From Phormidium tenue FACHB-1050 (GTDB lineage: Bacteria > Cyanobacteriota > Cyanobacteriia > Pseudanabaenales > Pseudanabaenaceae): 64,000 nucleotides of DNA. Shown here piece by piece: positions 381 to 4,586 of the stretch. Position 1 is the first letter of the stretch, and each line of letters starts with the position of its first letter. The DNA lies in the NCBI RefSeq assembly GCF_014696925.1, contig NZ_JACJQY010000004.1:124001-188000 (forward strand), given 5' to 3'. Position numbers and translations under genes: made by a program. The notes under the pieces are model-generated. The model was not told where the DNA came from. It did not search any database and saw only the letters and a program-made list of their open reading frames with translations.

Positions 381-1355
381 TTAATGGTAGATGGCTATAT
401 TGCTAAAATTGTCTGCATTAGTCTTAATACAATCATTTAAGTCATATAAATCAATTTCTTCTTTGAAATATTTTAAAATGTTAGAGCCTACAAAATAAGC
501 TAAATTCACAGGTACAGAATTACCGATCATTTGTTCTAGATTTGTTTTAGTTCCAAAAAACTTAAATGACTCTGGGAATGTTTGAATATAGCTTCTTTCT
601 ATAGTTGTTAAAGGTCTAACTGTAGCGATATCAATATCCTGAGGATCGCCACTATGCAATTTATAATTTGCAGGGATTGGACGATTAACGCCTCTGATGG
701 TTGGACTTGGCTCATCAATTGAGAAAATCCCTCTACGTGCATAACTTCTAGGATGTCGATAATAATATTGTAGATTTAATCGATCTCCAAGATAGTCTCT
801 AACTGTCATCGGTTTATTAGCCAAATTAATCTTAAATAAATCTACTAAAGTATTTTGTTTTCTGCCAAGTTCACCAATCATGAAAAAACGTGATCTTGCC
901 TGTGGCACATGACAGAGAGAAGCATCTAAAATAACACTTGACAAACCATAACCGCATCTTATGAAATGCTCCGATACTTGCTGAAGAATCGGGCTTTTAG
1001 TAATTCTCTGCACATTTTCCATCACAAACCATTTTGGCTTAATCTCACAGATAATATTTGCAAAATTGTAAGTTAGATTAGCACGATCTCCATTTAAATC
1101 ACGTTTTCCAGCACTTGAAAAGTCTTGACATGGAGATCCCCCAATGATCATTTCTGGTGCAAATTTACGAATTATTCTAATTGAGGTATTTTCATCAGAT
1201 AAATCTTGTTGAATAGCTGGATGATTAAAGTTTTCTCGATAAATATCTAGCGCAATATCCCAGTTATCAATAGCTGCTAAAATCTCAATTCCTGCTTGCT
1301 GAAAACCAAGAGATAAACCACCACAACCACTAAATAAATCAACAGCAGTAATCAT
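381..1355 (-). CDS. DNA (cytosine-5-)-methyltransferase, type II R-M modification subunit
   Basis: This 324-residue protein carries the ordered motifs of C5 cytosine methyltransferases: DLFSGCGGLSLGF at residues 6-18 (motif I, SAM binding), GGSPCQDFS with the catalytic Cys (motif IV), MENV (motif VI), QARSRFF (motif VIII) and GNSVPVNLA near the C-terminus (motif X). It transfers a methyl group to C5 of cytosine in the host recognition site, protecting it from the partner nuclease. Its start overlaps the stop of the upstream nuclease gene in an ATGA arrangement (1352-1355), which suggests translational coupling. The variable region between motifs VIII and X is short, so the target cannot be read from it. 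Confidence 0.93.
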   Translation of the reverse strand: MITAVDLFSGCGGLSLGFQQAGIEILAAIDNWDIALDIYRENFNHPAIQQDLSDENTSIRIIRKFAPEMIIGGSPCQDFSSAGKRDLNGDRANLTYNFANIICEIKPKWFVMENVQRITKSPILQQVSEHFIRCGYGLSSVILDASLCHVPQARSRFFMIGELGRKQNTLVDLFKINLANKPMTVRDYLGDRLNLQYYYRHPRSYARRGIFSIDEPSPTIRGVNRPIPANYKLHSGDPQDIDIATVRPLTTIERSYIQTFPESFKFFGTKTNLEQMIGNSVPVNLAYFVGSNILKYFKEEIDLYDLNDCIKTNADNFSNIAIYH

Positions 1356-2407
1356 GAGAATAGCTCTGGTGAATTGAAAATAATTGCGTCAAATCTACGT
1401 TCTGGACTTAGCAGATTTTGTCCACCGCCCAAAATAATATTTTTGATTTCGTCTTTTGTAATTCTGGGAGATGTCAAATTTGTGCATGACATATATGGGT
1501 TTGTTACATTCCCTGCGGAAGCAAAAGCTTTATCATTTTTAGTGTTGTAAGAAAGTTTATCAATGATGTCTTTATAGTCACATCTGCCATGTGTACAGAT
1601 ATCCAGAAGCATTTTATATAGCCAAATACTTGTTCTAGTTTGGCGTGTTATTTGAGTTGCTGCATTATCATTTTTAGATATTTGTGAGATAAACCAAGCA
1701 AAGGCAGCATCACTCCAAACAAAAACATCAAGACAACTCTCTGCTAGTTTTGGTGATTTCCCAACAGTCTTCCAAATTGGATGTAAAAGAAATGGAGATT
1801 GATTTTTCTCAATATCAATACTAATATCAGAAATACAGTTAATAATTTTTGTAATACTGTTAATTACTTCTCTTGCATCTGACCAATTCTCAATAAGTAC
1901 AGCAGTACTTTCAATATGTTGCCTAACTATCTCAATATTTGTGCTGACTATACTTGCTGCTAAATATACTATCGTGTCAGGTCTGACCACAATTTCAGAA
2001 CCAAATTTATCATCACTCAAGTTACAAGTCGTGTTATCAGGTAATGCAGTTAATTTAACTTCTAAGCCTCGTAAACATTGCCCTGTAAGACTATCTTGAA
2101 TAACTAAGTCAGTTCTAGGTAGAGTTCCAATAACATATTTTTGAAATGGGGTATGTTGGGCTTCAAAAGCAAAATATGTGTTTGTTTGATTGGGCTTAAT
2201 CCCGAAAACACTTGTAATATCGATGAAATTTATCCCAAACTTTTGATTGGCGAAGGATATGTAATTAGCAGCAAAACCTCGATGATCGAGATAACAAGAT
2301 AAAGCGGCTGGAAAACTTGAATTAAATTGATTTTTGCCCCAAGCATCTGCTTTAGTAAAATCTCGATTTGAATTGTTCAAGCCAAATAAACTTGCTTGCG
2401 ATGCCAT
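1352..2407 (-). CDS. Type II restriction endonuclease, HindVP-like family
   Basis: This 351-residue protein lies upstream of and overlaps the methyltransferase gene. Around residues 98-125 it has TDLVIQD followed by GLEVKLTALPDNTT, a plausible PD-(D/E)xK layout with an Asp and then ExK on the next strand. The phrases WGKNQFNSSFPAAL, EVKLTALPDNTT and VRPDTIVYLA resemble the HindVP restriction family, whose founding member is reported to recognise GRCGYC. The family match is from memory and the specificity is inferred. The gene is AT-rich, with few HIP1 sites compared with its neighbours, which fits horizontal acquisition. A 65-bp gap separates it from the TPR gene upstream. Confidence 0.75.
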   Translation of the reverse strand: MASQASLFGLNNSNRDFTKADAWGKNQFNSSFPAALSCYLDHRGFAANYISFANQKFGINFIDITSVFGIKPNQTNTYFAFEAQHTPFQKYVIGTLPRTDLVIQDSLTGQCLRGLEVKLTALPDNTTCNLSDDKFGSEIVVRPDTIVYLAASIVSTNIEIVRQHIESTAVLIENWSDAREVINSITKIINCISDISIDIEKNQSPFLLHPIWKTVGKSPKLAESCLDVFVWSDAAFAWFISQISKNDNAATQITRQTRTSIWLYKMLLDICTHGRCDYKDIIDKLSYNTKNDKAFASAGNVTNPYMSCTNLTSPRITKDEIKNIILGGGQNLLSPERRFDAIIFNSPELFS

Positions 2408-2472: not shown

Positions 2473-4512
2473 CTACTCAAATTGTGGCATTTCGAGAGCA
2501 ACTGGTGCAAACTCTAGTTGAACTGCGGCTTGTCGAACTTTGGCAGCGAAGGCGAGCGGATCGAGGTCGAATTGCTCGAATAGTTCCCGTCCTCGTAAAC
2601 AGCGTAATTCAGGACTTTCAGCAGCACCACTGACTACCCACAATACAAAATCCTTGTTGCTACGGGCATTTTCAATCTCGATCGCCGAAATTGCAAAGGA
2701 CTCGCGATCGCTGGTAAAGCTTTTAATTACTACCGCTTCACTCAGATCATCTTTGGTACATTCAAGATCGTATCCAACTTGGGACTTATCTACTGATCGC
2801 ACCATCCAGCCTTCGCGCATATACTGAGCCATCACCGAAATCATCGCCAGTTTTTCGGCAGTGCTAGGATCTTCGATGGAGAAAGGTATTGGTTTTTCGA
2901 CAACTTTCTCGACAACACGATCTACAAATTTCTCAACTACGCGATCGACGACCTTCTCGACTTCAACAAATTTCTCAACTTCAACTATTTTTTCTACTTC
3001 AACAATCTTCTCGACCTCAACAATCTTTTCCACTTCCACAACCTTTTCCACAATCTTCTCAACTTCCACAATCTTTTCGATCGCTTCAGTCAAATCAGAT
3101 ATGGCAGTTTCTGCGTTAGAGATAGCGACTTCATTGGAGATTGGTTCCGTCGCCATAATAAGTCTGCTAGTCTCTTCATCATGATCGTCATTACTATCAG
3201 TACTCGTAGACATAGCTAGCGGCACTTCAGCAATAATTTCGGGCTGATTATCTACAACAGCATTGGTGTCAGGTTCAGCAGCACTGATCGCGTAGCTGCT
3301 TCTTGGTCTAGCCTTAGGCAAGGAATCAATTGCGAGGGTTTCCAGCAATTCTTTCGCTTTTTTTGCCTTTTCGGGCTTACCCTGAGTTTGATAAAGGACG
3401 ATCGCTTTGCGAAAATCATCACCAGCAAGGGTTTCATCGGCAGTGTCAGGCTGAGAATAAGCTAAGCCACGATAGTAATAGGCATCAACATTGCTAGGCT
3501 GCAACTCGATCGCATGGCTAAAGTCCCGAATCGCTTCAGGAAATTCCTTAAGAATATAATGGGAGCGTCCTCGTCGGAATACTGCCAAATCTCGCTCAGG
3601 ACTGATCTCAAGGGTTTTGCTATAGGCCGCGATCGCCTGTTCGTAGCTCTTAAGCTTGAAATAGGTATTGCCTAAAGAAAAATGAGCATCGGCATAATTT
3701 GGATCAATGGCGATCGCTGCCTGAAAATCTGCCATCGCTTGCTGAAACTGTCCCAGCAAGAAATTAATTTCGCCACGCTTATAGTAGGCAAGCCTCGCCT
3801 TATCGGGTCGCATGGAAATAGCCTTGCCATAATCTCCCACCGCTTTGGCATATTCCCTCAAATTCACATGGGCATCGCCTAGCCCCAAATATGCCTTGAT
3901 AAAATTAGGATTGAGTTTCAGCGCTTGCCGAAATGACTCCAAAGCATCTTGAGGGAAACCTTGTTGAATATCCTCTAATCCCCAACGGTAATAAACATCA
4001 ATCAGACTAATTCCCTTGCCAGCCCGAAAAGCCTTTTGGGTTTGACGTTCCCACTCGCGATCAAGCATTCGCACATACTCTTCACGAAATACACCTGCAT
4101 CACTCTGTGGTTCGAGGGGCATTCCCTGAAAATGTGGCAACTGCTTTAAATAATCAGTCCTAAGCGGCTCATCAAAGCTCACACAGGCATCCCAAGCCAC
4201 CCATACCCGAAAATTATTAGATTGTGAGTCAATGTCGTAAGCTTCGCTCAGTTCCCGATAACGAGCCGATCGCAGTTTGAGTTGATATTCACGATCCGCA
4301 GGAACTACAGTTCCCGAAGCAAAATAGCCCTGATTGGCACTACCGATTCGCTTAAAGTAAGCGCGATCGCCCGCCTTGAGCGTTTGAATGTTGCCGCAGT
4401 TCCAAGTAACGATATACTGCTCCCCCTCAGAGATATCGGCGATCGCTTCACGAATAAAATCGCGAATCTCTGGCTCAGTCTGTTCGTTACACAGAAAAAT
4501 TCTTGTGACCAT
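2473..4512 (-). CDS. Multidomain protein: EVE/PUA-like N-terminus, TPRs, VEK-repeat linker, DUF3883-like C-terminus
   Basis: This 679-residue protein has four parts. Residues 1-150 hold LKAGDRAYFKRIG and GYFASGTVV, then PQSDAGVFREEYVRML and W, a pattern like the EVE/PUA-type domains of modification-dependent restriction proteins. Residues about 165-390 are five or six TPR units. Residues about 472-540 are a VEKIVE-type hexapeptide repeat, probably a long charged helix or stalk. The last 110 residues contain GYDLEC and VVIKSF, resembling DUF3883/PD-(D/E)xK-type folds, but the Glu usual in ExK appears replaced, so nuclease activity is doubtful. The gene sits directly upstream of the restriction-modification pair on the same strand. 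Sensing of modified DNA is an inference; TPR and linker are plain in the sequence. Confidence 0.6.
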   Translation of the reverse strand: MVTRIFLCNEQTEPEIRDFIREAIADISEGEQYIVTWNCGNIQTLKAGDRAYFKRIGSANQGYFASGTVVPADREYQLKLRSARYRELSEAYDIDSQSNNFRVWVAWDACVSFDEPLRTDYLKQLPHFQGMPLEPQSDAGVFREEYVRMLDREWERQTQKAFRAGKGISLIDVYYRWGLEDIQQGFPQDALESFRQALKLNPNFIKAYLGLGDAHVNLREYAKAVGDYGKAISMRPDKARLAYYKRGEINFLLGQFQQAMADFQAAIAIDPNYADAHFSLGNTYFKLKSYEQAIAAYSKTLEISPERDLAVFRRGRSHYILKEFPEAIRDFSHAIELQPSNVDAYYYRGLAYSQPDTADETLAGDDFRKAIVLYQTQGKPEKAKKAKELLETLAIDSLPKARPRSSYAISAAEPDTNAVVDNQPEIIAEVPLAMSTSTDSNDDHDEETSRLIMATEPISNEVAISNAETAISDLTEAIEKIVEVEKIVEKVVEVEKIVEVEKIVEVEKIVEVEKFVEVEKVVDRVVEKFVDRVVEKVVEKPIPFSIEDPSTAEKLAMISVMAQYMREGWMVRSVDKSQVGYDLECTKDDLSEAVVIKSFTSDRESFAISAIEIENARSNKDFVLWVVSGAAESPELRCLRGRELFEQFDLDPLAFAAKVRQAAVQLEFAPVALEMPQFE
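2892..3096 (-). repeat. Tandem hexapeptide-coding repeat (VEKIVE type)
   Basis: Inside the TPR gene, about 68 codons encode near-perfect repeats of the pattern V-E-K-[IVF]-V-E, with later units drifting to VDRVVEKF. At DNA level this is an 18-bp periodicity. The opposite strand is therefore open in several frames and gives Ser/Thr/Phe-rich spurious proteins. Length variation by slippage would be expected here. Confidence 0.9.
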
Positions 4513-4547: not shown

Positions 4548-4586
4548 AGAAAATAGAGGGAGTACTTAGCACTCCCTCTATTTTCT
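4548..4586 (-). terminator. Hairpin directly after aroH
   Basis: A perfect 16-bp stem (4548-4563 with 4571-4586) with a 7-base loop begins at the aroH stop codon and lies between aroH and the downstream TPR gene. There is no clean T-run after it on the minus strand, so efficiency as an intrinsic terminator is uncertain. Confidence 0.55.

What the first reader, a model, noticed from the sequence alone, without database searches (positions are those of the whole stretch)
2473..4512. EVE-like/TPR/VEK-repeat/DUF3883-like protein next to an R-M pair
An N-terminal domain like those reading modified DNA bases is joined to TPRs, a repetitive helical stalk and a C-terminal fold related to PD-(D/E)xK, 65 bp upstream of a restriction gene on the same strand. 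The architecture suggests a modification-sensing or defence accessory protein that I have not seen described. The apparent loss of the ExK Glu hints at a binding rather than cutting role.
Basis: partly seen in the sequence, partly recalled or inferred. Interest (0 to 1): 0.7.

Follow-up and report, generated by a model that had tools for sequence, protein, structure and literature searches.

The report
Inactivated modified-base-reading nuclease, core in Pseudanabaena
A cyanobacterial gene that looks like a defence enzyme for cutting chemically marked DNA has lost its cutting residue but is kept and tightly conserved in every Pseudanabaena genome examined, so it probably now only recognises and binds marked nucleic acid; the restriction genes beside it are a chance neighbour.

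Summary
The domain observation is right: the 679-aa gene at 2473-4512 (-) has an EVE-fold N-terminus, TPRs, a VEK repeat and a C-terminal NOV_C (PF13020, formerly DUF3883) domain of PD-(D/E)xK fold that lacks the ExK glutamate. The defence-accessory reading is not supported. The gene is core in Pseudanabaena (26 of 26 genomes), usually just downstream of aroH. The R-M pair adjoins it in 4 of 24 loci, is low in GC and free of HIP1, and is missing from an empty site in a relative. A patchy Nostocales family (7 proteins found, one on a mobilizable plasmid) has the same EVE-TPR-NOV_C layout, one TPR or fewer detected, and a complete D...ExK motif. Other relatives carry HNH instead of NOV_C, and some EVE domains sit on McrB-like GTPases. 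In the Pseudanabaenales clade every motif is broken, in at least two different ways, while the EVE, VEK and NOV_C parts stay under purifying selection as strong as AroH. Best reading: a modification-dependent restriction-type nuclease turned into a non-cutting, core reader of modified bases with an enlarged TPR scaffold. Ligand and partner are unknown.

The parts
2473..4512 (-). EVE-TPR-linker-VEK-NOV_C protein, 679 aa (whole gene)
   Evidence: 26/26 Pseudanabaena genomes
4018..4512 (-). EVE (PUA superfamily) domain, aa 1-165
   Evidence: AF2 pLDDT 90.6; VIA-align Z 11.3 to 2ar1, 10.2 to 2eve, 8.7 to VcaM4I; profile reaches EVE modules of McrB-like proteins at E 6e-15
3328..4017 (-). TPR array, aa 166-395, five repeats by TPR_1
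   Evidence: PF00515 E 1.4e-38, five stretches
3079..3327 (-). variable linker, aa 396-478
   Evidence: dN/dS 0.26 against 0.03-0.06 elsewhere
2890..3078 (-). VEK repeat, aa 479-541, 6-residue period
   Evidence: tandem repeats of period 18 bp; dN/dS 0.036
2476..2889 (-). NOV_C (PF13020, DUF3883) domain, PD-(D/E)xK fold, aa 542-679
   Evidence: Pfam E 5.3e-10; structural matches Hjc, I-Ssp6803I, EcoRV
2722..2769 (-). degenerate active site: Asp582 kept, ExK Glu replaced by Val595, Lys597 kept
4548..4586 (.). 16-bp perfect hairpin between aroH and this gene, terminator-like (neighbouring feature)
   Evidence: read directly from sequence
1352..2407 (-). HindVP-type restriction endonuclease (neighbour, judged not part of the system)
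   Evidence: PF09519 E 3.3e-137; insertion shown
381..1355 (-). C5 cytosine DNA methyltransferase of the R-M pair (neighbour, judged not part of the system)
   Evidence: PF00145 E 4.6e-67

Best explanation
The gene descends from a modification-dependent (type IV-like) restriction nuclease of layout EVE-TPR-PD-(D/E)xK and has become a non-cutting, vertically inherited reader. The EVE domain would flip a modified base out of nucleic acid, most likely a methylated cytosine in DNA, into a pocket. The dead NOV_C domain would add nucleic-acid affinity without cleavage. The enlarged TPR array and VEK spacer would hold a protein partner that carries out the response. Shown by tool results: both folds, the broken motif, relatives with an intact motif, core distribution, purifying selection, and the R-M pair as an insertion. 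Inferred: loss of cleavage, the modified base, DNA rather than RNA, base flipping in this protein, and the partner.
For: EVE fold and PD-(D/E)xK fold. Nostocales relatives with EVE plus NOV_C and complete D-ExK, 7 of 7 proteins, one on a mobilizable plasmid. Pseudanabaenales form one clade in the EVE tree (97/93) with motif D/V-or-I/K in Pseudanabaena, D/A/K in G532 and G533, D/S/R in G098, K/E/K in G531. Because G531, the first branch, kept Glu and lost Asp while the others lost Glu, at least two separate losses from an intact ancestor are the simplest reading. The best-scoring TPR families call one stretch or none in the three Nostocales proteins scanned, and three to five in Pseudanabaenales. 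Median dN/dS 0.033 EVE, 0.055 TPR, 0.036 VEK, 0.039 NOV_C, 0.039 AroH. Precedent: PD-(D/E)xK domains inactivated but retained, predicted for nucleic-acid binding, in CoCoNuT systems (PMC11090510).
Against: No binding data. The EVE pocket could not be mapped residue by residue on VcaM4I (P24, W82, Y130; PMC7897488), and the window protein lacks the WNPxxWxW-like start of EVE-HNH and EVE-McrB relatives. EVE, YTH and ASCH domains also bind RNA. The direction active to inactive is inferred; the tree root is midpoint only. dS values of 0.9-1.6 are high, so dN/dS values are approximate.
Confidence: 0.5

Rival explanations
1. Reader of modified RNA (tRNA, rRNA or mRNA) rather than DNA, for example in RNA metabolism, with the same inactive nuclease fold used for RNA affinity.
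For: YTH and ASCH structures rank close to EVE for the model; core, slowly evolving gene; inactivated PD-(D/E)xK domains are predicted to bind RNA in CoCoNuTs.
Against: Nearest sequence relatives are EVE-HNH, EVE-McrB-like and EVE-NOV_C with intact motif, all restriction-type layouts.
Confidence: 0.2
2. Still an active nuclease: another acidic residue replaces the lost Glu and the protein restricts modified DNA.
For: Asp582 and Lys597 are kept in Pseudanabaena; a nearby Glu592 is invariant in the Pseudanabaenales alignment; PD-(D/E)xK enzymes can relocate active-site residues (own knowledge).
Against: The position is Val or Ile throughout Pseudanabaena and the motif is broken in different ways in sister genera, including loss of Asp (G531) and Lys (G098). 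Glu592 is five residues before the Lys, expected on the opposite face of the strand.
Confidence: 0.1
3. Defence accessory that works with the adjacent HindVP-type R-M pair.
For: Same strand, 65 bp apart; type IV-like ancestry.
Against: R-M adjacent in only 4 of 24 loci; R-M GC 0.34 against 0.46, with no CGATCG in 2 kb against 193 in 64 kb; empty site in L048; gene intact without R-M.
Confidence: 0.05
4. Stand-alone core defence protein that senses modified phage DNA and signals through TPR partners instead of cutting.
For: EVE-type specificity domain; TPR array; relatives in the restriction world.
Against: Core and near-invariant EVE domain is unlike arms-race genes; neighbours read by eye are mostly housekeeping.
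Confidence: 0.15

Closest known systems
EVE-HNH modification-dependent endonucleases (VcaM4I, PMC7897488)
   Same: N-terminal EVE fold (Z 8.7 to 6yex), modified-base reader joined to a nuclease-type domain
   Different: NOV_C instead of HNH, catalytic Glu lost, TPR array and VEK spacer added, core distribution
EVE-TPR-NOV_C proteins of Nostocales (e.g. WP_264268008, Tolypothrix PCC 7712 plasmid)
   Same: Same domain order; 39% identity over the EVE domain and first TPR
   Different: Intact D...ExK, one TPR or fewer detected, no VEK repeat, patchy and partly plasmid-borne
EVE-TPR-HNH proteins of cyanobacteria (L019, L020, L058)
   Same: EVE plus TPR; 36-39% identity over aa 1-275 or 1-304 for L020 and L019
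   Different: C-terminal HNH_2 nuclease (E 4e-13 to 8e-15) in place of NOV_C
EVE domains of McrB-like GTPases (L110, L111)
   Same: EVE module matched by the profile at E 6e-15 and 1.5e-14
   Different: GTPase translocase instead of TPR-NOV_C
Type II/III CoCoNuTs (PMC11090510)
   Same: Inactivated PD-(D/E)xK fold retained, predicted nucleic-acid binding, in a type IV restriction lineage
   Different: McrBC-based GTPase system, not an EVE-TPR-NOV_C single protein

Membership tests
EVE domain (PF01878) | profile match over curated cut-off | tested here: inconclusive
   Window protein E 0.13, below cut-off; aligned relatives L060, L110, L111 over cut-off
EVE domain (PF01878) | EVE/PUA fold | tested here: met
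   Z 11.3 over 126 residues to 2ar1, rmsd 2.8; 2eve 10.2
EVE domain (PF01878) | binding of a modified base in the pocket | not testable with these tools
   needs binding assay; pocket residues could not be mapped
NOV_C / DUF3883 (PF13020) | profile match over curated cut-off | tested here: met
   39.7 bits against 22.1, E 5.3e-10
Active PD-(D/E)xK nuclease | PD-(D/E)xK core fold | tested here: met
   Hjc Z 9.0, I-Ssp6803I 8.7, EcoRV 6.3; Foldseek EcoRV E 2.4e-3
Active PD-(D/E)xK nuclease | D...(D/E)xK catalytic triad | tested here: not met
   D/V/K in the window; broken in every Pseudanabaenales row; intact in 7 of 7 Nostocales proteins
Modification-dependent (type IV) restriction enzyme | reader domain plus active nuclease | tested here: not met
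   reader fold present, nuclease motif broken
Modification-dependent (type IV) restriction enzyme | restricts modified phage DNA | not testable with these tools
   needs phage assay
Component of the adjacent HindVP R-M system | conserved linkage to the R-M genes | tested here: not met
   4 of 24 loci; empty site
PADLOC defence gene | match to a known defence model beyond generic TPR | tested here: not met
   only weak TPR models, best E 6.5e-5

The most novel reading that the evidence does not exclude
A restriction enzyme turned into a bacterial epigenetic reader: the protein reads the host's own cytosine methylation, for example m5CGATCG within HIP1 (GCGATCGC), the highly repeated cyanobacterial palindrome of unsettled function, and recruits a partner through its TPRs. 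HIP1 occurs 111 times in the window against 0.84 expected, and a candidate CGATCG-type C5 methyltransferase is in 26 of 26 Pseudanabaena genomes.
Probability: 0.12. Interest if true: 0.8.

Novelty: new variant of a known kind. Interest (0 to 1): 0.5.

Why it matters
It appears to catch a modification-dependent restriction nuclease at two stages: intact-motif, patchy and partly plasmid-borne in Nostocales, and inactivated, fixed and slowly evolving in Pseudanabaenales with a larger TPR scaffold. If it reads host methylation, it would be a bacterial reader protein for a DNA mark whose function is open, and it gives a direct gene to delete and a direct ligand to test. I found no description of the EVE-TPR-NOV_C layout in the EVE survey (PMC7641849 has no TPR or cyanobacterial mention); of the seven library papers that name DUF3883, the two opened do not describe it.

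Tried and rejected
R-M accessory role: rejected on distribution, composition and empty site. Phage homologues of the EVE domain: none in 50,697 phage records or viral contigs. Plasmid search with aa 1-200 found only the Tolypothrix protein. Mapping the VcaM4I base pocket by sequence: PDB profile searches did not list VcaM4I, so this is inconclusive. PDB sequence search with the NOV_C profile gave only chance hits. PADLOC gave only generic TPR for the window protein. Promoter and terminator scan: counts no higher than shuffles. Host-methylation correlation: mixed, not claimed.

Full report
Observation. The ORF at 2473-4512 on the minus strand encodes 679 aa and ends 65 bp before a restriction gene (1352-2407) that overlaps a C5 methyltransferase gene (381-1355), all on the minus strand. 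Pfam gives RE_HindVP (E 3.3e-137), DNA_methylase (E 4.6e-67), five TPRs and, upstream, AroH chorismate mutase.

End domains. The C-terminal 135 aa match NOV_C/DUF3883 at E 5.3e-10, over cut-off; the AlphaFold2 model (pLDDT 82.8) matches PD-(D/E)xK enzymes: EcoRV first by Foldseek (E 2.4e-3), Hjc Z 9.0 and I-Ssp6803I 8.7 by VIA-align. The N-terminal 165 aa reach EVE only weakly by Pfam (E 0.13), but relatives reach 3.7e-4 and 4e-5, and the model (pLDDT 90.6) matches EVE structures first: 2ar1 Z 11.3, 2eve 10.2, THYN1 with 5mC DNA 9.5, VcaM4I 8.7. A profile of the domain also finds EVE modules on McrB-like GTPases (E 6e-15 and 1.5e-14).

Distribution. A C-terminal query matches all 26 Pseudanabaena genomes and four genomes of three other genera of the family (G098, G531, G532, G533), but not g2, g4, g5 or g212. 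Within Pseudanabaena the gene usually follows aroH by about 70-90 bp. The downstream side varies. Of 24 loci where it is visible, four carry the R-M pair: the window, L033, L100 and L050. In L048 the gene is followed after 127 bp by the aminopeptidase gene, whose upstream sequence is the same as that found after the methyltransferase in the R-M strains. The R-M genes have GC 0.34 against 0.46 for the gene and 0.43 for the window, with no CGATCG in 2 kb where the window has 193 in 64 kb. The R-M pair is therefore best read as an insertion.

Relatives. The EVE domain with one or more TPRs occurs elsewhere in cyanobacteria with two kinds of C-terminus. EVE-TPR-HNH proteins are in L019, L020, L058 and others; in Nostocales several share one chromosomal site. 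EVE-TPR-NOV_C proteins are in seven Nostocales loci, one on a mobilizable Tolypothrix plasmid beside an integrase and a cytosine methyltransferase (for L144 the scan found EVE and NOV_C but no TPR). In that family, 25 of 218 genomes have a match of any kind.

Active site. All seven Nostocales EVE-NOV_C proteins and three other NOV_C proteins from Pseudanabaena genomes keep D and ExK. All Pseudanabaenales rows are broken: D/V-or-I/K in Pseudanabaena, D/A/K in G532 and G533, D/S/R in G098, K/E/K in G531. In the EVE tree Pseudanabaenales is one clade (97/93), G531 branching first. Since G531 lost Asp and kept Glu, while the rest kept Asp and lost Glu, at least two losses are the simplest account. 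The tree has a midpoint root, so the ancestor being active is inferred. TPR_1, the best-scoring TPR model for the window protein, calls five repeats; three are called in G531 and G533 by their best models, one in P0001 and L145 and none in L144.

Selection. Median dN/dS in Pseudanabaena is 0.033 for EVE, 0.055 for TPR, 0.036 for VEK, 0.039 for NOV_C and 0.26 for the linker; AroH is 0.039. The inactive nuclease domain and the VEK repeat therefore appear to be kept for a function. dS is high, so values are approximate.

Mechanism. The simplest account is a former modification-dependent nuclease that still recognises modified nucleic acid but does not cut, with the TPRs holding a partner. Retention of inactivated PD-(D/E)xK domains, predicted for nucleic-acid binding, is described in CoCoNuTs (PMC11090510). 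EVE domains flip 5mC/5hmC in VcaM4I (PMC7897488). Ligand, partner and cellular role remain inferred.

Host methylation idea. HIP1 occurs 111 times in the window against 0.84 expected. HIP1 contains CGATCG, methylated to m5C in Synechocystis and Anabaena (PMC6604393, PMC4390886). A C5 methyltransferase whose length and C-terminal motif suggest the CGATCG type (my judgement from memory; specificity not tested) is in 26 of 26 Pseudanabaena genomes but not in G098. This fits the report that Pseudanabaena PCC 7367 has HIP1 without a recognisable CGATCG methyltransferase, if G098 is that strain, which I infer from genome size.

Literature. The EVE survey lists EVE-PD(D/E)XK and EVE-HNH proteins but mentions neither TPR nor cyanobacteria. 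Seven library papers name DUF3883; the two opened do not describe this layout. Only open-licence papers were searchable.

Noticed in passing
window 381-2407: HindVP-type R-M pair looks newly acquired: GC 0.34, no HIP1 and no CGATCG.
   Followed up: yes
window 1-64000: 111 HIP1 palindromes (GCGATCGC) against 0.84 expected.
   Followed up: partly
window 4548-4586: 16-bp perfect hairpin between aroH and the gene, terminator-like; a -10-like GATAAT lies close to the start codon, so the gene may have its own promoter and a very short leader.
   Followed up: no
L146, L147, L149, L151, L095, L096: EVE-TPR-HNH genes share one Nostocales chromosomal site near a DHH-type phosphoesterase gene, and are broken by a stop or split in G512, G640 and G612.
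   Followed up: partly
L114:9001-14306: Mobilizable Tolypothrix plasmid with intact-motif EVE-TPR-NOV_C gene, integrase, cytosine methyltransferase and an unnamed 516-aa protein that may be its restriction partner.
   Followed up: partly
L145, 1.9-2.2 kb after the gene start: ORF of repeated VSIPQAGFVEFQ units, as a CRISPR array would read.
   Followed up: no
L155, L156, L157: Stand-alone EVE-like proteins of about 160 aa in Nostocales; L155 lies near phycobilisome-like genes.
   Followed up: no
L099: Two identical-looking 405-aa OrfB/TnpB-like genes downstream of the orthologue in G158.
   Followed up: no
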